The notes: a model not told the origin generated them from the letters alone. Shown: positions 30,617 to 41,993, counted from the first letter of the stretch. The stretch is DNA of 64,000 bases from Candidatus Cloacimonas acidaminovorans str. Evry (GCF_000146065.2 NC_020449.1:1898654-1962653), one strand, 5' to 3'. Made by a program: numbers and translations.

Positions 30617-30730
30617 AATCACCTCACTATTTTCTTTTCTTTATCCTTTTTTGTAGAGGCAACTTAAGTCAAGTTATTTTTTGGAGTATGACAAAAAATG
30701 TAACCGCTCACAAATATCACAGATTACACA

Positions 30731-30941
30731 GATAAAAATAATTGTTTCCCGCAGATTTCGCAGCCCAAAAATAAGGATTCCGAATTTGTTCTTAGTTCTT
30801 CGCTAATAATAAAAAATAACGCGCAAAAAACAAATCCAATTAATCCAGTCAATTCATTTATCTGTGTTCTCTTATTCAATCAACGAAAAAAACTTTGCAC
30901 TCCCGCACTACGAACTAAGAACTATAAAATCACCCTCTCAT
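30731..30941 (+). repeat. Long direct repeat at the downstream side of the accessory operon
   Basis: This matches 41685-41925 in the same orientation, about 90% or better by eye, except for a ~29-base expansion of the GCAGATTACACAG unit in the other copy. Inside are perfect inverted arms GTTCTTAGTTC and GAACTAAGAAC about 140 bases apart, so the unit may itself be a dispersed hairpin element. Confidence 0.9.
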
Positions 30942-31016
30942 AAAACTATTTTAAAGATATGCTATTATCTAATAAAAATCATAATTAAAAGAAGATATTA
31001 AGTCCTTTAACTATCC

Positions 31017-31213
31017 CTATTCTTTAGGATGAGTCCTAAACCATTCATTAACCCTATTTTGCACCTCTTGCTTTTGTTGATATGTCAGTTGATTTTCTAT
31101 ACTTTTTACCTCTTGTTCTGCATCAGTATAACCATTTCTGGAAGCAATTAGATACCAATAATAAGCTTCCTTATAGTTTTGTATTACTTCTTCTCCATTT
31201 TTGAGGTGTCCTG
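31017..31213 (-). pseudogene. 3' remnant of a Sel1-repeat protein gene
   Basis: On the minus strand a frame reads about 60 codons to a TAG at 31017-31019. It encodes a Sel1/TPR-like repeat (NYKEAYYWYLIASRNGYTDA) and a charged tail ending NEWFRTHPKE. No start codon or ribosome-binding site precedes it. The frame is cut near 31204, where TGTCCTGAAAATAGCGGAC begins, followed by AAGGAGAAAGGA and ATG GAT AAA GAT TAA on the plus strand. This looks like the end of an insertion sequence with a truncated first gene, though that part is uncertain. Confidence 0.6.
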
Positions 31214-31332
31214 AAAATAGCGGACTAAAATTAAGGAGAAAGGAATGGATAAAGATTAAGTAGGGTTATTCTCATATATTGATGGCAAATTTAGAATATG
31301 AATTACTATTTAACTTATTTGCCTGCTAAATT

Positions 31333-32088
31333 TTAAATGGCTTTTCCATTATTAGTAATGAAATTTGTGTCATCAGAAGAGAAACAAACTAAAGAATTAT
31401 ATTTAACATCATACAAATTTGTGCTATTCATAAGGGCCCAGATTCCGAGTTTCTCAGCTTTTGCTTGAGCTGCTAATTTTCTAAAATAATGCAACTGTTC
31501 AAAGGAATACTTTTCATACTCCTGACTGAAACCCATTCTCATCATCTGAGCATTAACAAAAAGATTATCAGAAAAACGGTAGACATAGGCTAATAATCTG
31601 CCGAATTTATCCAGATGCATTGACTTTTCATTAAAATGGTCCAGTTGCAGATAGATAAATTGATTTAGAATTAATGAGCTAAGATAATCTTTCGCTTGAT
31701 TGGCAAGATTTCTTAAAATAGGATTTTTTTCATTCATTTCAGGAGTGTCTATGCCTATCAATCTTACTCTAATTTCATGCGTGCCATCAGAAATAGTTAT
31801 AGTATCACCATCATAGATTTTTATAACTTTAAATTTTGCCTTCTGAAGTTCAGTATTATTTAAAACAAAAATCTGATTTAAGGAATAACTGCCACTTTTA
31901 ATCACTTTTTGAGAATCAAGAATAGATTGTGCTTGAGGTTGTTTATAGATAGCAATTTTATTCTGATCGGAAGAGTTATGAGTTTTACAAGAACAAACCA
32001 GCAAAAGGGAAAAAATTAAAAATAGTTCAATTAATCTTTGAGGATTCATCAAAATATTAAAATGAAAAGGTATTTTAGATTTATACAT
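31333..32088 (-). CDS. Thermonuclease-family (SNase) lipoprotein
   Basis: The 251-aa product has an N-terminal lipoprotein signal (hydrophobic FLIFSLLLV, lipobox VCSC). It then has a staphylococcal-nuclease domain from about residue 85: KVIKIYDGDTITI, RVRLIGIDTPEMNE (carrying the equivalents of catalytic Arg35 and Glu43 of S. aureus nuclease), and KFGRLLAYVYR (equivalent of Arg87). The C-terminal helix is AQAKAEKLGIWA. It should be an active Ca-dependent DNA/RNA nuclease tethered outside the inner membrane. It is the last gene of the accessory operon, seven bases after the MotB-like gene. Start: ATG at 32088 or 32049, neither with a clear ribosome-binding site; coupling to the gene before is likely. 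Confidence 0.85.
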   Translation of the reverse strand: MYKSKIPFHFNILMNPQRLIELFLIFSLLLVCSCKTHNSSDQNKIAIYKQPQAQSILDSQKVIKSGSYSLNQIFVLNNTELQKAKFKVIKIYDGDTITISDGTHEIRVRLIGIDTPEMNEKNPILRNLANQAKDYLSSLILNQFIYLQLDHFNEKSMHLDKFGRLLAYVYRFSDNLFVNAQMMRMGFSQEYEKYSFEQLHYFRKLAAQAKAEKLGIWALMNSTNLYDVKYNSLVCFSSDDTNFITNNGKAI

Positions 32089-32095
32089 TATCTAT

Positions 32096-32701
32096 TTATT
32101 TAGACATTATCTGTTGCATTGTTCCGATAAATTTGGGGACAATTCTTATTACTACTCGCCTATTTTTCTTATTAATGGTATTATCAGGTGTCGGCACTGC
32201 CAATTTTGATTCTCCAAAAGCAGCTGGAATCAAATCTATATCTGGATCTCTAAAAAAGTCATCTTCTTTAAATTCCTTAATCAAACTCAGTGAACGATCT
32301 AAAGATAATTTATAATTATAATTTTTATCTCCAACGGTATCTGTATGTCCTTCTATAATTATGCAATATCTTTTTTTTCTATCTCCTACCTGCATATAAT
32401 TTTTAAGCTTTTTTCTGAATTGCCGGATTTTAGGAAGATTATCACTTTTTAGTTCGCTTTTATCAAACTCAAAAAGAATATCGGCTGGTATAATTATTTC
32501 ATTATTTTCTTGATTTAATTCCAAATCAAGAGATTTAAACATTGATTTGAAATCATCAATATCTTTTTGATCTGCCTCTACTCTTTTGCTATAATTAAAA
32601 TAGAAGATAGAAAATAAAATGAAGAAAATAAAGAATAAAGAAGAAAAAATGTCAGCAAAACTGGGCCAATAATTTAACTCATCTCGATTGTCTGATTTCA
32701 T
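32096..32701 (-). CDS. ZorB/MotB-like protein: single TM plus OmpA-type peptidoglycan-binding domain
   Basis: The 201-aa product has a short cytoplasmic start and one TM segment (about residues 16-36). An aspartate sits at the membrane edge (FADIFSSLFFIFF, Asp17), the place of the proton-carrying Asp of MotB and ZorB. An OmpA-like domain follows: FEFDKSELKSD (about 77-87), IIIEGHTDTVGD (115-125) and NRRVVIRI (180-187). In MotB, PomB, TolR and ZorB this protein pairs with a MotA/ExbB-type channel and anchors it to peptidoglycan. Here its ATG overlaps the stop of the MotA-like gene by four bases, strong evidence that the two form one complex. Confidence 0.88.
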   Translation of the reverse strand: MKSDNRDELNYWPSFADIFSSLFFIFFILFSIFYFNYSKRVEADQKDIDDFKSMFKSLDLELNQENNEIIIPADILFEFDKSELKSDNLPKIRQFRKKLKNYMQVGDRKKRYCIIIEGHTDTVGDKNYNYKLSLDRSLSLIKEFKEDDFFRDPDIDLIPAAFGESKLAVPTPDNTINKKNRRVVIRIVPKFIGTMQQIMSK

Positions 32702-34242
32702 CTTTTATGTTTCCTGTTGTTTTTCTTCTTTCTAATGAAGCCAAAAACTCTTAGGGAATCAATTTCTTGATTAAACCGATTAAGATTTTCTTCCAGAGAA
32801 CGAGAATACTTTATCATAGAATCAATCATAGCATTATTCTTCTCTGCAATAGCATTAAGTTGTGATATAGATTCAGGGTCATAATAATAAAAATCTATCT
32901 TTTCTTTTTTAGGAATTGTTTGACCAAAAAGAGTTCTTAATTCCCGATCATAATCTTTAAAACTCGTTGTCATAGTTTCACTAAATATCTGAGAGCTACT
33001 GATGAACTCAGTTAAAAGTTTATCTAAATTCTCTTTAAAATTGTCAAATTCTCGGGTAACGCTATGCACGTTATCACCTACAGAACTAAAAGTATCAAGC
33101 TTATTATTCAAGGCAGTTAGATAATTCTGGACTGAACTGGTATAGGATGGAATAATATTAATGTTTTCCAGGAGTTTTTTCATCTCATTAATAATCCCTT
33201 CATTTACTCTGGTAATTTCCTCTTGCTTTTTAATGATATTATTCAAGGGTTCATTCATTTCTCCTATATTAGTCTTCATCTCAGAACCCAAATTAACGAA
33301 TTCATTTAAGTTCTCAGTAGCAAGTTTAATACTTTGTTCCATAGAAGAACTTGCATCTTTTAACTTTTCTGTGATATCGGAATATGAATTAATTTGTTGT
33401 GCTTGTTGATTTGATATCAGTTTAATTGTTTCATAATCTTGATTTAACCGAGTAGCAATATCTTCCATAGATTTAAGAGTTTCTTCATTTGTTTGCTTCT
33501 GATTTTCAATAAGGGGCTGAAAATTGTTGATAAATCCAATTAGTTTCTCATCTAAACTGTTAACAAATTTATTTATGGTATTATTTAGTCTCATTACTGT
33601 TTTAGCAAAACGGTCTTCTGTGGATTTAGGTGATATATAAGGAATATAATCTACTACCAGAGCTTTCATAGCGCTATCAATTACTTCATCCGATATATTT
33701 CTTTCCTTTCCAAAATACGATTTTAATAAAAAAGCACAGATTAAAGCACATAAGCTGCTGGAAAAAGCAAGACCAGCTGAAAAAAGGAGGGGAATAATAC
33801 TTTCGGCTAAAATAAAACTATCTGGATTTATATTCTTTAATTGACTTATGTTGTGTCCAGTTGCACATACACCTATTATAATACCCAGAAAAGTTCCCAT
33901 TAGTCCAATGATTGGTAATTGATTCATTATAGAGTTTATATTATAAAAAGCAGTGTTCGTCTTTGAAATTAGTAATTCTTTAAAGTTTTCCACATCTATT
34001 TGTTGACCTGTTTGAGCACAGGTAGCAAGATAATCTAAAGCTGGATATTTTCTTTCTTCTTCACTCAGATTAATAAATAAATCCTCATTTTTTGCTTTGA
34101 TAACTTCTCTTGTACTATTTATCAATATATTCTCAGATCTTATGATCTTAAATGTTTTATTTCGATTATATATAGATAGTCCGATTTCAATAATAATAAA
34201 AACTATTATAAAAAATAATGTTAAAACAATGGTAGAATTCAT
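32698..34242 (-). CDS. ZorA/MotA-like proton-channel protein with long coiled-coil tail
   Basis: The 514-aa product has a TM segment at residues 4-23 and two more at about 109-127 and 147-173. The MotA/TolQ/ExbB signature is present: MNQLPIIGLMGTFLGIIIG and IIPLLFSAGLAFSSSLCALI. The remaining 300 residues are a polar, heptad-rich helical tail (about 205-480; for example INKFVNSLDEKLIGFINNF and MEDIATRLNQDYETIK) with a very basic C-terminus RKKKNNRKHKR. A MotA-like membrane unit with a long cytoplasmic coiled coil is the hallmark of ZorA of the Zorya phage-defence system. Unlike Zorya, no zorC, zorD or zorE follows. It is nine bases from the preceding gene and overlaps the MotB-like gene. Confidence 0.85.
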   Translation of the reverse strand: MNSTIVLTLFFIIVFIIIEIGLSIYNRNKTFKIIRSENILINSTREVIKAKNEDLFINLSEEERKYPALDYLATCAQTGQQIDVENFKELLISKTNTAFYNINSIMNQLPIIGLMGTFLGIIIGVCATGHNISQLKNINPDSFILAESIIPLLFSAGLAFSSSLCALICAFLLKSYFGKERNISDEVIDSAMKALVVDYIPYISPKSTEDRFAKTVMRLNNTINKFVNSLDEKLIGFINNFQPLIENQKQTNEETLKSMEDIATRLNQDYETIKLISNQQAQQINSYSDITEKLKDASSSMEQSIKLATENLNEFVNLGSEMKTNIGEMNEPLNNIIKKQEEITRVNEGIINEMKKLLENINIIPSYTSSVQNYLTALNNKLDTFSSVGDNVHSVTREFDNFKENLDKLLTEFISSSQIFSETMTTSFKDYDRELRTLFGQTIPKKEKIDFYYYDPESISQLNAIAEKNNAMIDSMIKYSRSLEENLNRFNQEIDSLRVFGFIRKKKNNRKHKR

Positions 34243-34251
34243 TATTTCTCC

Positions 34252-34860
34252 TTATTTTATTGATATTTCACCTTTTGCTCGGAATATATAGTAATTTCCC
34301 TGTTTTTCATATATAGGATTTTTCTTCAATACTATTTGGTCATTTATCTGAATATTAGCAGGGAAATCAATAATTTCCCTATATAACCTCATTGTATCAT
34401 TGATATTTTCCTTATAAAGATTATCCAGATGTAAAAGATATTTTGTCCCATCTTTAATTAGATAAAGACCTTTGGGATTGCTAACTGGTTCAAGTTTTTT
34501 TAATCCTTCTTCAGATCTCCAAACCCAGATTCTATTATCTTGATTTGGTTCTTCTTTTGGAGGAAGAATTTCAATTGGCGGATTAATCATATTCTGTGGT
34601 TCAGATTTATTGATATGGTTTAATTGATTCAATCTATTTTCCAGTTGCTTAACTCGATCTTCAAGTTCCTCAATTTTTTCCAATTTACCTCTAATTGAAT
34701 TGAGCATTGAATAAAGTTTCTGGATTTGTTCATCATCACTACTATGTCTATGATGTTCTTTGGCAGTTTCCAGATCCTCCAATTTTTTACGAAATTTAAT
34801 AATAATCCAAGCTAAAACAGCACCTTCTAAAATTACTAAAATTAAAATTACCCATCTCAT
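34252..34860 (-). CDS. Membrane-anchored coiled-coil protein of the accessory operon
   Basis: The 202-aa product begins with one TM helix (about residues 2-22). A charged coiled coil follows (about 23-85, including LEKIEELEDRVKQLENRLNQLN), then a proline-rich linker (about 90-108). A C-terminal globular domain of predicted beta structure (IWVWRSEEGLKKLEPV ... GNYYIFRAKGEISIK) completes it. No known family recognised. Its position between the Hsp70/actin-like ATPase and the ZorA-like channel suggests a linker between cytoplasmic ATPase and membrane complex; a GrpE-like exchange role is conceivable but unsupported by motif. Confidence 0.8.
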   Translation of the reverse strand: MRWVILILVILEGAVLAWIIIKFRKKLEDLETAKEHHRHSSDDEQIQKLYSMLNSIRGKLEKIEELEDRVKQLENRLNQLNHINKSEPQNMINPPIEILPPKEEPNQDNRIWVWRSEEGLKKLEPVSNPKGLYLIKDGTKYLLHLDNLYKENINDTMRLYREIIDFPANIQINDQIVLKKNPIYEKQGNYYIFRAKGEISIK

Positions 34861-34879
34861 TTTCTATTATATCCTAATT

Positions 34880-37800
34880 CTATTGATTTTTTGAAAGATA
34901 ACGATGTAATCTATTAATTGTAATCTGCATTCCAAGAATAAATACTGAGCTGGAAATAGAATTATAATTTTTAATATTATCTTCTATAACTCCTCTCAAT
35001 TCACCAATGAACTTACCCCCATCGCCAATTAATATATTTTTTATACTTTCAAGATTAGATAAAGCACTATTATTTTTCAATCTATCCCTATAAAGATTAC
35101 TTTTTGCGAGTACCTCAAAGAAGGTGTTATGGAACTTGACTATTTCAGATTTATTTTGGTCCAGATGTATATTATGTCCATTCTGTAAAATTAGTTCATT
35201 AAATTCATCTATTGTCATATTAGAGAGGTCAGAGTTCGCTTCAATAAATACTTTTTCCGCAATTATTTGTTTTTTACTTGCTTCTTTTGCTCTGAGTTCT
35301 TCATTACCTCTACAAAGTCCTATGGCTACTTCTCTTTTCTTATCCTGAGCAGAAGAAGTGTGAATTTCTACCTCTTTATCAAAAGAGATAGCTTTTTTAA
35401 TTACTTGTTTATAAATCTCTTGTTCCTGTTCATCTATTTTATCCACTGCTCCACTGCTCCAGCAGGCAAATCGTGAACCATTACCAGCCAGGTATAGGTT
35501 GATTTTTTTGATATTATCCATATCAATTGCTCTACTCTGGATTCCAATTTCATATAGTAGTGCACTATAGAAATAGAGAATTATAAAGCGAATTTTATAG
35601 AAAGAATCTGACCTTGCAAGATTACTCAATGTGGTTTCATCTAATGAATATAGAATATAATTCAACTGATTTTGAAACCCTTTAATATTTTGAAAAATAT
35701 CTCTTTTAGTAGAAGGTAAATTAATGACGGCGTCATAAATTATTGAATATATTACATTATCTTTTTCAAATCCAACCAGATTCATTCCAGCCCAGAGAGA
35801 ACTGTAGAGCATATGGATTTGACCATCTTGCCAGATAGAAATATCAGATGAACCGCCTCCTGTATCAATAATTATTGAGATATCTGGAGTGTTACGAGGA
35901 AGAATTCCTTTATGGTCAAAATATAGTAAAGCAGCTTTACTTTCATCCGTAATTTTATATCCTTCTCCTACTAATTCACGCCACATTTTTTTATAATCAT
36001 TGATTAAAGTTTCAGAAAAAGATTTAGGAAAAGCCCAGTGATATTCTACTTTTTTTAAATCAACTCCTCGTTTAATTAATTCATACTTTAACAAGAGCAG
36101 TAATATCCTGAGATATTCTTTTGATGCTTGTTGTTTTATTAATTGAGGTGCCCATTTTAAATTGGTTTGTTGAACATAAGTTTTTTTAATTGTCCTTCCA
36201 TCTAAATCATAATTGAAAAATCCAACATCATCTTTAGAGAAAGCAATAGAGGTATTTAATAATGCTTTATAAGAATCAGTATCACCTTCAATTAATATCA
36301 TAGAAGGAAGAGGCATATCAACAGATTGATTATTATGAATCTCACTTAGTGAATTAGGTAAGAAATATTGTTTTAAATAATTATAAATCAAATTAGGAAT
36401 TTGTTCTCTTCCTAATTCTGGTTCAGAAAATCTTATGAGGGTGATAAAATCATTATCATTCAGATTTTTACCTGAAAATTCAGAACTATATTTCAGCACT
36501 TCTGGCTCGGAATTATCAATTGTAATAGCAATATTAGTATGGGAAGTTCCAAAATCAATACCAACTTTTGCAGATTTTTCCGGATTCATTACTGTGGTCA
36601 GGAATTTATGATTGAGAATTAATAAACCCTTACCATTGGAAGCAATATCAGAAATCACAATATAAGTAGGAAGTTTTTCTAATTGGAATATTTCTATTTT
36701 ATCAGCTTTGCGAGATCTCTCATAATTTATATCTTTAAAATCCTGGTCTTTAAACTCCAGAGGCACCATTTCTTCCTGATTTATACCATCTTTGTATCTT
36801 TTCCCATAAACAAAAGCATAATAGCTATCTTTCCAGTTTTCAGGATGTAGTGGAGGCCAAATCATTATATGTGGAAGAGGTGTATCAATATCCCGGTCAT
36901 CATAATTTATAATACGATTTTCTTTGCTATTAGTTAAGTCTTGAAAATAATCCCGTTTAATTTCTATATAATCTCCATTCTGGATAGGAATTTTTAATGT
37001 AACTCTAACTGTTTTATCACTTATTTCTTGGATGCTTAACATATCCTGTACATCATCATAGTTAAAATAGGAGAAAAATGTATCAGTTAGAGGAAGTGCA
37101 TATTTCATATCGCTGCTATCTTTGTAAGAACCGAGTATAAGTCTATTATTATTGAGCCGATATTTATACTTAACCAGAACCGGTTGGAAAAAATCTTCTT
37201 GGGGTAATATCCAGGGATATTTTATGTTTTCACCTGGCAGAAAATCTCTGTTGCTATCTTTTAATTCTTCATATTTGAAATCTTGTAGATAGTTATAACC
37301 ATTGTAATACTCACTACCATATAAACTTTTGGAAGTGTCAATAACCAGAGGGGGTATTTCATTTTCCTTAAGATGTTTCAACAGATATGAACTGGATATT
37401 CTTTTTATATTAATTTTTTCCAGCAGGTTTGACAGAGAGGATTCCAAGAGAAAATCACAAGTAAGTAAAATGTCCTCCTTTAACGATTCTTTTAAACTTT
37501 CTGCACATATACCTTCATCATCAGATAAAGCTTTAACTAAATCAGGATAGTTTCCATCTTTTCGTAGTTTAGTGAGAAAGTTAGAATTTATCCATCTTTG
37601 AAAATCCTGTGGACGTTCTTTAAGAGGGACAGGTTTTTCTCTAAAATATCTTGGGAAAACTATATTACCTTCTTTATGCTTTAAATTCATAGGTGTGAAT
37701 AAAAGAGAAAAGGGACTGGTTCCTGCTAAAACGAATTTATCATTTGAATCTCTGCTGGCAATTAATAAACCAATGCTGACAACATCATTTATCTTTAGTT

Positions 37801-38158
37801 CGTCCGGACTGAGGTCATACAGTATTTTTAGAAACTTATTTTTCTCGTCATTCTTTATTTTAATCTCTTTATACTCAATATTAATATTCATCAATTCATA
37901 ATAGAAGATTATCTCCAGAACATCCAGGATATTGGACATAGCTTCTTTGTGCATAAGATGATTAGTAGATTTAATAGCTTCTTTAAAAAGTAACATTCTT
38001 GCCCAAGGTGAAGGAATAGAAGTAACATTAATTTTGGAATCCGGTGAAACTTCCATTTCATTAACAAAAGTAGTAAATTCAGTTGGAGATAATTCTTTCC
38101 ATTGACCAGGTGTGGTCTGAGGTAAAGATTGTTGTTTTGGAAGCAAGTAACGTGCCAT
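34880..38158 (-). CDS. Large protein with C-terminal Hsp70/actin-type ATPase domain
   Basis: The 1092-aa product has a novel ~500-residue N-terminal region (no motif recognised; MARYLLPKQQ start, several IWPPLHPENW-type aromatic clusters). From about residue 530 an actin/Hsp70 fold follows. Its phosphate-1 loop is KVGIDFGTSHTNIAITI (531-547), with helper motif EYHWAFPKSFSE (705-716) and ESKAALLYF (739-747). The phosphate-2 loop is IIIDTGGGSSDISIW (762-776) and the adenosine motif INLYLAGNGSRFA (886-898). A helical C-terminal region (about 950-1092) ends it. It should bind and hydrolyse ATP. It is not DnaK: the peptide-binding domain is absent and the N-terminal extension is unique. SrfB-type proteins are one comparison to test. 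It lies three bases after the tubulin-like gene. Confidence 0.85.
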   Translation of the reverse strand: MARYLLPKQQSLPQTTPGQWKELSPTEFTTFVNEMEVSPDSKINVTSIPSPWARMLLFKEAIKSTNHLMHKEAMSNILDVLEIIFYYELMNINIEYKEIKIKNDEKNKFLKILYDLSPDELKINDVVSIGLLIASRDSNDKFVLAGTSPFSLLFTPMNLKHKEGNIVFPRYFREKPVPLKERPQDFQRWINSNFLTKLRKDGNYPDLVKALSDDEGICAESLKESLKEDILLTCDFLLESSLSNLLEKINIKRISSSYLLKHLKENEIPPLVIDTSKSLYGSEYYNGYNYLQDFKYEELKDSNRDFLPGENIKYPWILPQEDFFQPVLVKYKYRLNNNRLILGSYKDSSDMKYALPLTDTFFSYFNYDDVQDMLSIQEISDKTVRVTLKIPIQNGDYIEIKRDYFQDLTNSKENRIINYDDRDIDTPLPHIMIWPPLHPENWKDSYYAFVYGKRYKDGINQEEMVPLEFKDQDFKDINYERSRKADKIEIFQLEKLPTYIVISDIASNGKGLLILNHKFLTTVMNPEKSAKVGIDFGTSHTNIAITIDNSEPEVLKYSSEFSGKNLNDNDFITLIRFSEPELGREQIPNLIYNYLKQYFLPNSLSEIHNNQSVDMPLPSMILIEGDTDSYKALLNTSIAFSKDDVGFFNYDLDGRTIKKTYVQQTNLKWAPQLIKQQASKEYLRILLLLLKYELIKRGVDLKKVEYHWAFPKSFSETLINDYKKMWRELVGEGYKITDESKAALLYFDHKGILPRNTPDISIIIDTGGGSSDISIWQDGQIHMLYSSLWAGMNLVGFEKDNVIYSIIYDAVINLPSTKRDIFQNIKGFQNQLNYILYSLDETTLSNLARSDSFYKIRFIILYFYSALLYEIGIQSRAIDMDNIKKINLYLAGNGSRFACWSSGAVDKIDEQEQEIYKQVIKKAISFDKEVEIHTSSAQDKKREVAIGLCRGNEELRAKEASKKQIIAEKVFIEANSDLSNMTIDEFNELILQNGHNIHLDQNKSEIVKFHNTFFEVLAKSNLYRDRLKNNSALSNLESIKNILIGDGGKFIGELRGVIEDNIKNYNSISSSVFILGMQITINRLHRYLSKNQ

Positions 38159-38161
38159 TTT

Positions 38162-39628
38162 TTACCTTCCTTTAGTTATTTTTGCCAAGGACATTGCTTC
38201 TACCATATCACCTAATAAGTTATTTTGATTGGTTTTCTTATCATAAAGTTTGGTATCCAGATGGCTTATATGATATCCTTTATATTTATCAGGATTATTA
38301 GTTAGAAGATTATCAAGTTTGAGTTCATAATCCATTATATTTAATTTTGCATAATTATTATGATTTTGATAAATCCATTCTCGGAAGGAATCCATTAATT
38401 CTTTAAGAGAAGAAAGTTCAGTTTTTTTATCAATTATATCTCTTGCTCTAACTTTTTCATTGTCAATCTTAAGGTCTCTTAACCAAGCTATTTTATCTAA
38501 AAGTCTAACATTGTTTTTATCAATAAGTTCAAATAATTCATTTATATGATGATAGAGTAGAGCAAACTTTTCAAATGGTTTTCCTTTATCTTTATGAGGA
38601 ATATCTTCATCAACTACATCGGTAGTATCATCATTATTTTTATCAGGATTTTTCACCTGTATTACATAGAATGGTTTGAAGTTACCGCTTCCTTTATTGA
38701 AGAAATCTATAGCAGCATAAGCTGCCATAAGTTCCAGCATATGAGCATCATTTTTTTGCTCAGTGCTTCCTATAGCATAATTTTCGTACTGTTTACAGTG
38801 TTCAAAGTCATCACCCAGAAAATAATTAGAGTCAATCTGAGAATAATTATTTTTATAGAATTCACAAGCAGTTTTAGCATTAATCATAAAACTTTTTGAA
38901 TTTGGCATTATCTTTTCTTGTTTGAGGCTTTCTTGAAATTTCTGCAAGTTTTCAGGGTCTTTAAGCTTAAAATAGGGAAGCATTAAAACACCACCAACTT
39001 TAGTAGATGGAGATGCATTTTTGATTAATTTGCTGATAACTGGATATCCTGAAGCTCCAGTACCTCCAAATAACGATGCAAAAATAAAAACTCTGGAAGC
39101 AGTATCTTCTTCCAATCTACCTTTTAATTCTGTCCAGAAAGCTTGATTTTGAATATCGGTCATTAAGATAGAGCCAATAGAAGGAATACCTCTATATCCA
39201 GCACTCATATCCATATTTAATTCTTCTTTACTGAATAAAAGGTCAGCCAGGAATTTATATTCTGTCCCCTGAAGTTTCGTTTCATATTCAATAAAATGGG
39301 AAAGTTTATTTTGAGAAGGGTCTAAACCAGAGTTGGGGTTATATAAATTAGGAATTATAACTCTAGTATCAAGTACATTTTCTTCATCACAATATATAAT
39401 CTCTGTATTGAATAAATAATCTTGGGATGGTCTTGGTAAGTGTTCTCTAATGAGTTTATATTTTTGAATTAGACTTAAAGTTCTGGTGATATTTCCATTA
39501 CTCTGGTCAGGATCAACAAATATAGGAAATAGAGGCTGGTCTAAATGAATTCCCATAGCACATAAATAAATAAGTGATTCCAGGCATCTTGCACCTGTTC
39601 CTCCAATAGAAAATACATAGTAAGGCAC
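38162..39628 (-). CDS. Tubulin/FtsZ-like GTPase
   Basis: The 488-aa product has an N-terminal glycine loop FSIGGTGARCLESLIYL (residues 6-22), in the place of the FtsZ/tubulin T1 loop. PIFVDPDQSNGN (35-46) resembles the T3 region. The T4 signature is FASLFGGTGASGYPVISKL (183-201), close to the GGGTGTG/GGTGSG of FtsZ and tubulin. It is far from FtsZ in the rest of the chain and has no membrane segment. It best fits the Pfam 'Tubulin-like' (Tubulin_2) group of accessory tubulins, which is my recollection of family naming. GTP binding and polymerisation are inferred. Neighbours are three and eight bases away. Confidence 0.8.
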   Translation of the reverse strand: MPYYVFSIGGTGARCLESLIYLCAMGIHLDQPLFPIFVDPDQSNGNITRTLSLIQKYKLIREHLPRPSQDYLFNTEIIYCDEENVLDTRVIIPNLYNPNSGLDPSQNKLSHFIEYETKLQGTEYKFLADLLFSKEELNMDMSAGYRGIPSIGSILMTDIQNQAFWTELKGRLEEDTASRVFIFASLFGGTGASGYPVISKLIKNASPSTKVGGVLMLPYFKLKDPENLQKFQESLKQEKIMPNSKSFMINAKTACEFYKNNYSQIDSNYFLGDDFEHCKQYENYAIGSTEQKNDAHMLELMAAYAAIDFFNKGSGNFKPFYVIQVKNPDKNNDDTTDVVDEDIPHKDKGKPFEKFALLYHHINELFELIDKNNVRLLDKIAWLRDLKIDNEKVRARDIIDKKTELSSLKELMDSFREWIYQNHNNYAKLNIMDYELKLDNLLTNNPDKYKGYHISHLDTKLYDKKTNQNNLLGDMVEAMSLAKITKGR

Positions 39629-39636
39629 TATTCCTC

Positions 39637-40032
39637 CTATTTAGCTTTGAGTATATATTCATGAAGTCTGCAAAAATATTTTTTTGCTCTAAGAGCAGGA
39701 CTTGCCAGGTAAAACAGTAAAAAGTCCCACACTGCCATAGCAATCATAAAATTGAGGATATAGATAAACCTGTAACTATCCGTCACCATCTCACTATCTA
39801 TCTTAATCGTAGTAAATATGATATAAATCAGATTAATAACCATAGAGACTATAAAAGTCATCCAGAATCTTTGGCTTTCTTTTTCTCTACGGTAATGCAA
39901 AGCAGTATAGATAGCGATAAAAATTATATTAACCATTAACCCAATAACAATGCTTTTTGCCATTTCATTACGCCAATTCTCAATGTAAATTGAAGGCCAG
40001 AAGAACCAAAAAAATAAGATATTAAGTAACAT
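39637..40032 (-). CDS. Small four-TM protein of the accessory operon
   Basis: The 131-aa product is very hydrophobic, with likely TM segments at about residues 2-16, 26-45, 57-76 and 88-111. Between them is a basic loop (HYRREKESQRF). The cytoplasmic tail is basic (RAKKYFCRLHEYILKAK). No family recognised. It starts at the base before the VWA gene's stop codon, so translation is probably coupled, and it may anchor the tubulin-like or VWA protein. Confidence 0.75.
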   Translation of the reverse strand: MLLNILFFWFFWPSIYIENWRNEMAKSIVIGLMVNIIFIAIYTALHYRREKESQRFWMTFIVSMVINLIYIIFTTIKIDSEMVTDSYRFIYILNFMIAMAVWDFLLFYLASPALRAKKYFCRLHEYILKAK

Positions 40033-41274
40033 TTATTTCCTCTCTATTTGTAGATAATAACGAGTCGTAGTTAAAAATTTATAGTCCTCAAAGTTATCCA
40101 GAATAAATTGCATCCAATTAGCAAGATGATAGGTTTTAGTCTGTAATTCAGGCTTTGAATCATCATTCGTGCTCCACTCTTTTATCCAGGAGGGTAAGGT
40201 TTTACGAAAAGATAAGAGAATGCGGTAGGTACCTGGATTATCTTCTTCAAAAGGAATTTTAAAAGTTATTTTATCTGTTCTTGCAAGCTTATTTGCTTTA
40301 ATAGTTCCTCTTTTATCTTGCAATTCAATGAAATTAGGATTTTTTTTCGCTTGATAGGCAACTGCATAATCTATGGTAGTACCGAATCTATCTTCATAAC
40401 CTTTTAAATTAAATTTCAGATATTGAAAATGACCCTTTCCTAAATTAAAATATGCCACCGGCAGTTTTTCATCATTACTTATATGGACAAGTTTTTCAGG
40501 CTCATTTTTCCCTGATTCATCCTGTGTATATTTTAGATGATTTGGTAGAACGACTCCAAAATCAAAACAATTATCAAAAAGGTCTCTAATTTTCTTCTGG
40601 ACAAAATCCGCATATTTACGATTTCCGAAGGCAAGACAATATATGGGACGTTTTCCTCCTGGTTCAATATCAATATATTTTCTGGCATATTCAGAAAAAT
40701 AGGACCCTTCAAAAGGAACTTGTTTTCCCATCAAAGCAAAGAAGCCGTTTCCTTCCAGATATTGATTTAGTTCTTTAGCAAAGATAACATAATCTTCTTG
40801 GGAATGTTGAGTTGATTGCACACCATCAGTGAGGATTATATTTACAGAATTTTTATCTTCTCTAATCAAGTTGAAAGGTTTAGTAAGATCAGTTCTGGAT
40901 TCTTTATAAAAATCTCGTCTGGATAATTTATATAGATTGGCTCTTAAATTTCCCTCCATCTTGAGCGAGCCTTGTCCAAAACTATAAAAGTTGATTTTAG
41001 CATCCTGAGGAATTTTTGCTATTATTGTATTAAGTAAATTGAGAAAACCACTATTTTTGCCCGTAAAACCATACATACTTGCACTGGCATCAACGATGAT
41101 ATTAAAACTTTTAGGAATAGCAGGTTTCTCGGAATGGGGAATACCAAAAGGTTTTTCCAATTCTTCCAAATTTTGGGGTTTCGTAGTGTCACTACTGCAA
41201 GAAAAAAGACCCAGAAATACAATAATGCTAATGAATATAAATATAAGAAAAGGCATTAATACTTTGTTCTTCAT
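40033..41274 (-). CDS. VWA-domain lipoprotein, first gene of the accessory operon
   Basis: The 413-aa product has a lipoprotein signal (hydrophobic core, lipobox LFSC, Cys26). A von Willebrand A domain starts at about residue 56 with the MIDAS motif DASAS (Asp62, Ser64, Ser66), a Thr-bearing stretch SRTDLTKPF, and the third MIDAS element ILTDGVQST. An Ig-like beta domain follows (about 290-370). VWA domains bind protein ligands through a metal ion. A lipidated extracytoplasmic VWA could sense or bind something at the cell envelope. The ribosome-binding site is GAGGT, and a promoter is predicted about 130 bases upstream. Confidence 0.87.
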   Translation of the reverse strand: MKNKVLMPFLIFIFISIIVFLGLFSCSSDTTKPQNLEELEKPFGIPHSEKPAIPKSFNIIVDASASMYGFTGKNSGFLNLLNTIIAKIPQDAKINFYSFGQGSLKMEGNLRANLYKLSRRDFYKESRTDLTKPFNLIREDKNSVNIILTDGVQSTQHSQEDYVIFAKELNQYLEGNGFFALMGKQVPFEGSYFSEYARKYIDIEPGGKRPIYCLAFGNRKYADFVQKKIRDLFDNCFDFGVVLPNHLKYTQDESGKNEPEKLVHISNDEKLPVAYFNLGKGHFQYLKFNLKGYEDRFGTTIDYAVAYQAKKNPNFIELQDKRGTIKANKLARTDKITFKIPFEEDNPGTYRILLSFRKTLPSWIKEWSTNDDSKPELQTKTYHLANWMQFILDNFEDYKFLTTTRYYLQIERK

Positions 41275-41497
41275 TTAAACCTCAATTTTTTGTTGAGTCC
41301 CAAATGTTGGTGTAAATTCCAACTCGTTGTTTCTCAGGTTCTTTGAGTGCATCTGTTATCTCTCATTACTCACAATCTATGTATGGACAAGCGACCAATT
41401 TCATTCTTTTTATCTTATAAATCCTTGTCAAGTTCTTTTTTAAAATAAGCTACCTTGCTGAGACGGGCTGGAGACCTGTGGAGGAGGCGTAGCCAAC
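41275..41497. other. Leader and upstream region of the accessory operon
   Basis: This holds the minus-strand promoter (41403-41431), the ~120-base leader, and, beyond it, GGGCTGGAGACC/GAGGCGTAGCC sequence abutting the MITE at 41498. No gene seen. Confidence 0.5.
41403..41431 (-). promoter_or_regulatory. Predicted promoter of the accessory operon
   Basis: On the minus strand TTGACA (41431-41426) and AAGAAT (41408-41403) are 17 bases apart. The next gene on that strand is the VWA lipoprotein, about 120 bases downstream. The -35 box is perfect; the -10 box matches 4 of 6. Confidence 0.45.
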
Positions 41498-41636
41498 GGG
41501 GTTGTCTCACAACCTCCCAAAAGTCCATTTTTTGCCATTTTCAGGTATACAAAGATGTATTCTAAAGAGGAGATTATTCCTTAAAATGGTTTATATTTAC
41601 TGTCTCATAACTAAGTTTTAGTTTCGGGACAGCCCC
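41498..41636 (+). mobile_element. 138-bp MITE-like element, copy 2
   Basis: This starts GGGGTTGTCTCACAAC and ends TTCGGGACAGCCCC. It differs from the copy at 23212-23349 at fewer than ten positions and has the same orientation. It sits between the accessory operon's promoter and the long direct repeat at 41685. Confidence 0.8.
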
Positions 41637-41684
41637 AGCCCGTCGCGGGTTTTAAAGGTTTGGGTAAGAACTTATAATTACCCT

Positions 41685-41925
41685 GATAAAAAATAATTGT
41701 TTCCCGCAGATTACACAGATTTCGCAGATTACGCAGATTACACAGCCCAAAAATAAGGATTCCGAATTTGTTCTTAGTTCTTCGCTAATTATAAAAAAAA
41801 TAGCGTGTAAAAAACAAATCCAGTTAATCCAATCAATTCAGTTATCTGTGTTCTCTTATTCAGTCACCGAAAAAAACTTTGCACACCCGCACTACGAACT
41901 AAGAACTATAAAACCACCCTCTCAT
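41685..41925 (+). repeat. Long direct repeat at the upstream side of the accessory operon
   Basis: Partner of 30731-30941, same orientation. It carries extra GCAGATTACACAG/GCAGATTACGCAG units near its start. The remaining ~170 bases match at most positions, including the GTTCTTAGTTC / GAACTAAGAAC arms. Confidence 0.9.
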
Positions 41926-41993
41926 CCTTCACAATTTCTCTTGCCAAAAAAACAGAACAGGAATATCAGGGCACAAATAGAAAGGAGAGAAAA

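What the first reader, a model, noticed from the sequence alone, without database searches (positions are those of the whole stretch)
31333..41274. Eight-gene operon combining a tubulin-like GTPase, an Hsp70/actin-like ATPase and a ZorAB-like proton motor
Seen: eight minus-strand genes with gaps of 19 bases or less and one 4-base overlap, from a VWA lipoprotein through a four-TM protein, tubulin-like, Hsp70/actin-like and TM coiled-coil proteins, a MotA/ExbB-like channel with coiled-coil tail, and a MotB/OmpA-like protein, to an SNase lipoprotein. Known: MotA/MotB-type pairs use an ion gradient to move a coupled part; ZorA/ZorB are the defence version; FtsZ/tubulin and actin/Hsp70 folds polymerise or switch on nucleotide. 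Inference: one envelope-spanning machine with two cytoplasmic NTPases, an ion-driven stator-like core, an outside ligand sensor (VWA) and an outside nuclease. Defence against phage or incoming DNA is the leading idea; surface motility or DNA uptake are alternatives. I know of no described system with this set.
Basis: partly seen in the sequence, partly recalled or inferred. Interest (0 to 1): 0.92.

Follow-up and report, generated by a model that had tools for sequence, protein, structure and literature searches.

The report
Mobile tubulin–actin–motor envelope operon
A mobile block of eight bacterial genes appears to build one machine across the cell envelope, combining relatives of the two cell-division skeleton proteins (FtsZ and FtsA) with an ion-driven motor like that of the Zorya anti-phage system; related gene sets occur in other bacteria, and its job, perhaps defence or envelope repair, is untested.

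Summary
The eight-gene operon is real, and its first seven genes keep the same order in the other four Cloacimonadota genomes that carry it (5 of 125). Its core order, vWA-like lipoprotein, small membrane protein, tubulin-like GTPase, actin-fold ATPase, recurs at about 20-25% identity in Bacteroidota and on cyanobacterial plasmids. In three genomes the GTPase and ATPase are fused. In 395 Bacteroidota genomes every strong full-length ATPase hit (9) lies in a GTPase-carrying genome. The set therefore travels as a unit.

In Cloacimonadota and several Bacteroidota the core is joined to a ZorA/ZorB-type pair with the motor aspartate conserved. Elsewhere the motor is replaced by other membrane anchors. 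The nuclease is accessory (3 of 5).

In this genome the operon is an 11.25 kb low-GC island between direct repeats, missing from two congeners. A copy in another genus is too similar for vertical descent.

Defence is plausible, but a flank test showed no defence-gene enrichment. I rate it a new variant of a known kind, function unproven.

The parts
30683..41934 (.). 11.25 kb accessory island carrying the operon (GC 30.8% against 38.0-38.4% in the 10 kb on either side)
   Evidence: In two congeners without the operon (L073, L074) sequence matching window 30682 is separated from sequence matching 41935 by under 100 bp; GC; operon absent from all 8 congeners searched
30750..30941 (+). left imperfect direct repeat at the island edge
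   Evidence: 81- and 131-nt segments 89% and 92% identical to 41732-41925; the only near-full second copy in the genome is the right one
41732..41925 (+). right imperfect direct repeat at the island edge
40033..41274 (-). gene 1: vWA-like lipoprotein, 413 aa; MIDAS-like DASAS at 41077-41091
   Evidence: Foldseek vWA matches to a low-confidence model
39637..40032 (-). gene 2: small membrane protein, 131 aa, 3 clear TM segments plus hydrophobic N-terminus
   Evidence: conserved position in Bacteroidota and cyanobacteria
38162..39628 (-). gene 3: tubulin/FtsZ-like GTPase, 488 aa, GTG start; GGTGASG loop at 39047-39067
   Evidence: PF00091 1.1e-5; family PF13809 2.2e-10; alignments A1, A7
34880..38158 (-). 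gene 4: actin-fold (FtsA/MreB-like) ATPase, 1092 aa, with about 520 aa N-terminal region of unknown fold (SIPSPWAR motif at 37997-38020); phosphate-1 DFGTS at 36542-36556, phosphate-2 GGG at 35852-35860
34252..34860 (-). gene 5: single-TM coiled-coil protein with C-terminal domain, 202 aa
   Evidence: positional equivalent in Bacteroidota, similarity only weakly above decoys
32698..34242 (-). gene 6: ZorA/MotA-like motor subunit, 514 aa, 3 TM and about 335 aa cytoplasmic coiled-coil tail
   Evidence: PADLOC ZorA1 1.5e-9; best solved-structure profile hit is Zorya ZorA 8qyk, E 9e-4
32096..32701 (-). gene 7: ZorB/MotB-like subunit, 201 aa; TM with conserved Asp17 (32651-32653), OmpA-type peptidoglycan-binding domain
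   Evidence: PADLOC ZorB1 6.9e-27; Pfam OmpA; Asp in all aligned homologues
31333..32088 (-). gene 8: SNase-family nuclease with lipoprotein-like signal, 251 aa; catalytic motifs DGDT, R..GIDTPE and FGR present; accessory
   Evidence: Pfam SNase 2e-17; motifs; present in 3 of 5 Cloacimonadota copies

Best explanation
It is a horizontally transferred accessory machine spanning the cell envelope. SHOWN: a co-inherited set of a tubulin-like GTPase, an actin-fold ATPase, a small membrane protein and a vWA-like lipoprotein, here joined to a ZorA/ZorB-type pair. INFERRED: the GTPase and the FtsA/MreB-like ATPase form an NTP-driven assembly on the inner face of the membrane, as FtsZ and FtsA do in division. 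The membrane proteins and the ZorA tail dock to it. ZorB clamps the cell wall. The vWA lipoprotein binds a ligand outside. When the envelope is breached (phage injection or wall damage) ion flow turns the motor, and the tail switches assembly of the cytoskeletal pair, which seals, remodels or shuts down that site. The exported nuclease, where present, would cut DNA outside the inner membrane. Likelihood by step: one complex 0.75; motor mechanically coupled to the NTPases 0.6; role in defence or conflict 0.45.
For: Same gene order at 20-25% identity across three phyla. GTPase-ATPase fusions in three genomes. Mirror-tree r = 0.98 between the two, 0 of 10,000 permutations as high. All 9 strong ATPase hits in 395 Bacteroidota genomes lie in GTPase-carrying genomes (Fisher p about 2e-14). 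ZorB Asp and the ZorA GT loop conserved. ATPase nearest FtsA/MreB. Non-ZorAB versions carry single-TM proteins, one with a bacterial SH3-like domain. Purifying selection in all eight genes, dN/dS 0.12-0.62. Mobile and patchy: 5 of 125 genomes, empty sites, direct repeats, 93% identity to a copy in another genus against 81% for a core gene. A type I R-M and TIR neighbourhood in G023. Zorya is proposed to sense envelope perturbation through ZorB and to act through the ZorA tail (PMC11890865).
Against: No experiment. The ATPase structure model was poor (mean pLDDT 43). No enrichment of defence families near the loci. The core occurs without ZorAB, so motor coupling is not general. No recognised cytoplasmic effector enzyme.
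Confidence: 0.5

Rival explanations
1. A division-like envelope remodelling or repair machine with no role in defence: the FtsZ-like/FtsA-like pair bends or seals the inner membrane, and the motor with its OmpA-type clamp works on the wall as Tol-Pal does in division.
For: Nearest relatives of the two NTPases are FtsZ and FtsA/MreB. Makarova and Koonin 2010 (PMC2875224) proposed membrane remodelling for FtsZ-like 1 + vWA + OmpA operons. No defence-gene enrichment in the flanks.
Against: Patchy, mobile distribution and recent horizontal transfer are unusual for a housekeeping envelope system; one copy lies beside R-M and TIR genes.
Confidence: 0.28
2. An accessory surface-motility, secretion or DNA-uptake machine driven by the 5:2 motor (compare GldL/GldM and the Ton system), the SNase processing DNA outside.
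For: 5:2 motors of this superfamily power gliding, type 9 secretion and Ton uptake (PMC11890865).
Against: No adhesin, outer-membrane channel, pilin or DNA-translocase gene recognised in the conserved set; SNase not conserved.
Confidence: 0.1
3. Two independent modules in one operon: a cytoskeletal core and a ZorAB pair that do not interact, brought together by recombination.
For: Core occurs without ZorAB in cyanobacteria, Prevotella and L047, L053, L054.
Against: ZorAB stays beside the core, same strand, in all 5 Cloacimonadota copies and in at least L048, L049 and L051 at low identity. The fused-core loci L059 and L060 also have ZorA-like and ZorB-like genes downstream.
Confidence: 0.08

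Closest known systems
FtsZ-like 1 (FtsZl1, Pfam Tubulin_2) operons of Makarova and Koonin 2010 (PMC2875224)
   Same: tubulin-like GTPase related to PF13809, vWA-domain partner, OmpA-type peptidoglycan-binding partner, several membrane proteins
   Different: no P-loop GTPase or protein kinase in this operon; tubulin-like protein is 488 aa without the long coiled-coil region; that paper's main text names neither an actin-fold ATPase nor a MotA/ZorA partner (its supplements could not be read)
Zorya anti-phage system, ZorAB (PMC11890865)
   Same: ZorA-like 3-TM subunit with long cytoplasmic tail; ZorB-like TM with conserved Asp and OmpA-type domain
   Different: no match to ZorC, ZorD, ZorE, ZorF or ZorG in the operon; instead a tubulin-like GTPase, actin-fold ATPase and vWA lipoprotein; tail about 335 aa
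FtsZ-FtsA pair of the divisome and the Tol-Pal motor
   Same: tubulin-fold plus FtsA/MreB-like actin-fold partners, with an ion motor and a wall-binding OmpA-type domain in the same operon
   Different: accessory and mobile; ATPase has about 520 extra N-terminal residues
GTPase-centred conflict systems with tubulin, HSP70 and vWA parts (PMC7159879)
   Same: combination of tubulin, HSP70-superfamily and vWA components in accessory operons
   Different: those are defined by TRAFAC GTPases (GAP1), absent here; no MotA/ZorA-type motor is named there

Membership tests
Zorya | ZorA/ZorB motor pair | tested here: met
   PADLOC ZorB1 6.9e-27, ZorA1 1.5e-9; ZorA best PDB hit 8qyk; Asp17 conserved
Zorya | cytoplasmic effectors ZorC+ZorD (type I), ZorE (II) or ZorF+ZorG (III) | tested here: not met
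   no match of any of the 8 proteins to these PADLOC families at E <= 1
Zorya | phage protection | not testable with these tools
   needs an experiment
FtsZl1/vWA/OmpA system (2010) | FtsZ-like 1 GTPase (PF13809) | tested here: inconclusive
   window protein 17.7 bits, below the 27-bit cut-off; 7 of 8 family members match, best 2.2e-10
FtsZl1/vWA/OmpA system (2010) | vWA-domain partner | tested here: met
   MIDAS-like motif and lipobox conserved; vWA folds among top Foldseek hits of a low-confidence model; no Pfam match
FtsZl1/vWA/OmpA system (2010) | OmpA-type partner (some genomes) | tested here: met
   Pfam OmpA 6.4e-10
FtsZl1/vWA/OmpA system (2010) | P-loop GTPase or Ser/Thr kinase partner (frequent, not universal) | tested here: not met
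   none in the operon by Pfam
GTPase-centred conflict systems | TRAFAC GTPase (GAP1) | tested here: not met
   no P-loop GTPase family match in the operon
Hsp70 chaperones | HSP70 family match and substrate-binding domain | tested here: not met
   HSP70 in 1 of 8 members at 0.1; FtsA in 6 of 8 and MreB in 5 of 8; HSP70 folds also appear among Foldseek hits, so only the shared actin fold is common

The most novel reading that the evidence does not exclude
A new class of immune or envelope-guard machine in which an ion-driven ZorAB-type motor, triggered by perturbation of the cell wall, drives the assembly of an FtsZ/FtsA-like filament pair at the membrane, instead of recruiting a nuclease.
Probability: 0.3. 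Interest if true: 0.92.

Novelty: new variant of a known kind. Interest (0 to 1): 0.72.

Why it matters
If true, it would link two worlds kept apart so far: ion-driven 5:2 motors (flagellar, Ton, Zorya) and tubulin/actin-type cytoskeletal polymers, in one mobile operon. It would give the 15-year-old prediction of FtsZ-like 1 'membrane remodelling' operons a concrete motor and a partner ATPase. It would also extend the modular logic of Zorya (same motor, exchangeable cytoplasmic output) to a cytoskeletal output. It names a compact gene set that can be tested in a laboratory host.

Tried and rejected
Zorya membership: rejected, no ZorC-G. Hsp70/DnaK assignment: FtsA/MreB nearer. Phage origin: no hits in IMG/VR for GTPase or ATPase, none in phage records for the GTPase. 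Cross-phylum transfer suggested by contigs binned as Bacilli (L012), Caldisericia (L010) and Fermentimonas (L014): L012 is 100% identical over its whole 11,746 bp to a Cloacimonadota contig, so it is probably mis-binned; the other two are short and not used as proof. Defence-island enrichment: 128 flanking and 128 control proteins hit 123 and 115 PADLOC families at 1e-10, no clear excess; only family totals are returned, and the controls happened to include a CRISPR locus, so this is a weak negative. AlphaFold of the ATPase and the vWA protein with five sequences gave low confidence; their Foldseek matches are used only as support. Common origin of the gene-5 coiled-coil protein across phyla: not established (profile score only slightly above decoys). 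Promoter and terminator scan: no more than shuffles. Literature (open-access library, no preprints): no paper with this gene set found in ten searches.

Full report
Observation. The operon lies in a 2,246,820 bp single-contig genome. That size is the one I remember for Candidatus Cloacimonas acidaminovorans, and the closest named relative found is Candidatus Syntrophosphaera thermopropionivorans W5, so the host is very probably that organism.

The island. GC is 30.8% in the island against about 38% around it. None of 8 congeners has the ATPase. In two of them (G003 as L073, G008 as L074) the sequences that flank the operon here are separated by under 100 bp, which gives island borders at about 30683 and 41934. 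Imperfect direct repeats of about 190 bp (30750-30941 and 41732-41925) mark both edges. They are the only two near-full copies in the genome, other matches being short pieces of a dispersed repeat. A copy in another genus, G027, shares 93% ATPase identity and 91.5% DNA identity over 9.9 kb, whereas the neighbouring stomatin-like core gene is 81% identical to its G027 counterpart. This implies recent horizontal transfer. dN/dS between the two copies is 0.12-0.62 for the eight genes, so all look functional.

Conservation near home. In five Cloacimonadota genomes from three genera the order vWA, small TM, GTPase, ATPase, coiled coil, ZorA, ZorB is the same. In G023, ZorB is present but overlapped by the ORF caller's SNase start. 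In G039 the coiled-coil slot was not recognised by the search, although a related contig, L014, has it. SNase follows in the window, G027 and G023 only. The IMG/VR scans (GTPase and ATPase) and the phage-record search (GTPase) gave no relative.

Conservation far away. tblastn against plasmid records found the GTPase next to the ATPase in Prevotella oral taxon 299 and in Picosynechococcus plasmids, and the GTPase on a Gloeothece plasmid. Reading those loci shows the lipoprotein, a small TM protein, GTPase and ATPase in the same order, except that in Gloeothece the lipoprotein gene runs the other way. A scan of 395 genomes from the phylum of the Fermentimonas bin (Bacteroidota) found the GTPase in 16. 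Their neighbourhoods show: L048, L049 and L051, with ZorA-like and ZorB-like genes downstream; L050 with ZorA-like; L057 with a ZorB-like gene upstream and a MotA/ExbB-like protein downstream; L055 and L056 with OmpA-domain proteins and TerD-like proteins (Pfam TerD 2.8e-68 for the one tested); L047, L053 and L054 without ZorAB but with single-TM proteins, one carrying an SH3-like domain; and L058, L059 and L060 with GTPase and ATPase fused in one 1615-1686 aa protein, ZorA-like and ZorB-like genes following in L059 and L060. One copy (L052) is decayed.

Is it one unit? Besides the fusions, pairwise distances of GTPase and ATPase correlate at r = 0.98 over 17 representatives, with 0 of 10,000 permutations as high. 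In the same 395 genomes the only strong full-length ATPase hits (nine genomes, E < 1e-20) are all in GTPase carriers. The other, weak matches are mostly hits of about 40 residues in ORFs of 420-500 aa, the size of FtsA (Fisher p about 2e-14). Related genomes are not independent, so these numbers are descriptive, but the neighbourhood is plainly conserved.

What the parts are. The GTPase carries GGTGAR and FGGTGASG loops and belongs with Tubulin_2. The ATPase has actin-fold phosphate-binding motifs. Its family matches FtsA best, then MreB, and hardly Hsp70. Its first 520 residues are unknown, with a strongly conserved SIPSPWAR motif. The lipoprotein keeps the lipobox Cys and D/E-x-S-x-S, so in several relatives the first metal ligand is Glu. 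ZorB keeps its TM aspartate in every homologue aligned. The solved protein closest to the ZorA profile is the Zorya ZorA. The nuclease has the SNase catalytic motifs.

How it works. The best reading is a mobile envelope machine: a tubulin/actin-type pair on the cytoplasmic face, coupled to a wall-anchored membrane module, here an ion-driven ZorAB-type motor. That the same core is joined to ZorAB in some lineages and to other anchors elsewhere suggests that the core is primary and the motor a drive or sensor option. Function stays open. Defence is favoured by mobility, patchiness, the Zorya likeness and one R-M/TIR neighbourhood. Membrane remodelling is favoured by the FtsZ/FtsA likeness and the 2010 prediction. 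The flank test gave no support for defence islands in general.

Known or new. The 2010 paper predicted operons of FtsZ-like 1, vWA, a GTPase and OmpA proteins. Its main text does not mention MotA, TolQ, Hsp70 or FtsA. The 2020 conflict-system survey lists tubulin, HSP70 and vWA parts with TRAFAC GTPases. The searches found no paper joining ZorAB to a tubulin/actin pair. The library holds open-access papers only and no preprints, and supplements could not be read. I therefore file it as a new variant of a known, experimentally unexplored kind.

Noticed in passing
L058:11096-16141, L059:548-5395, L060:8158-13218: Tubulin-like GTPase and actin-fold ATPase fused in one 1615-1686 aa protein in three genomes of the Bacteroidota draw.
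   Followed up: yes
L056:986-5627 and L055:7016-8455: TerD-family genes (Pfam 2.8e-68 for the one tested) sit with the GTPase/ATPase core and an OmpA-domain protein; the OmpA proteins share an N-terminal motif with the TerD proteins beside them (FNLSK-like, TLKRK).
   Followed up: partly
L008:124-3816: Type I R-M methylase and specificity genes and a TIR-type PADLOC candidate (PDC-S35) lie 3 kb upstream of the operon in G023.
   Followed up: yes
window 31020-31200, minus strand: Remnant reading YKEAYYWYLIASRNGYTDAEQEVKSIENQL, like the end of a Sel1-repeat protein, just downstream of the SNase gene; judged by reading only.
   Followed up: no
L012 (JAQUEG010000008.1): Contig binned as a Bacilli MAG is 100% identical over 11,746 bp to a Cloacimonadota contig (L007): probably a binning error in a public genome set.
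   Followed up: yes
L007:15992-16543: A protein that looks like a macro domain lies next to the vWA gene on the same strand in G040; judged by reading only.
   Followed up: no
L052:6924-12413: A decayed copy: stop inside the GTPase gene, ATPase missing, truncated ZorB-like ORF.
   Followed up: partly
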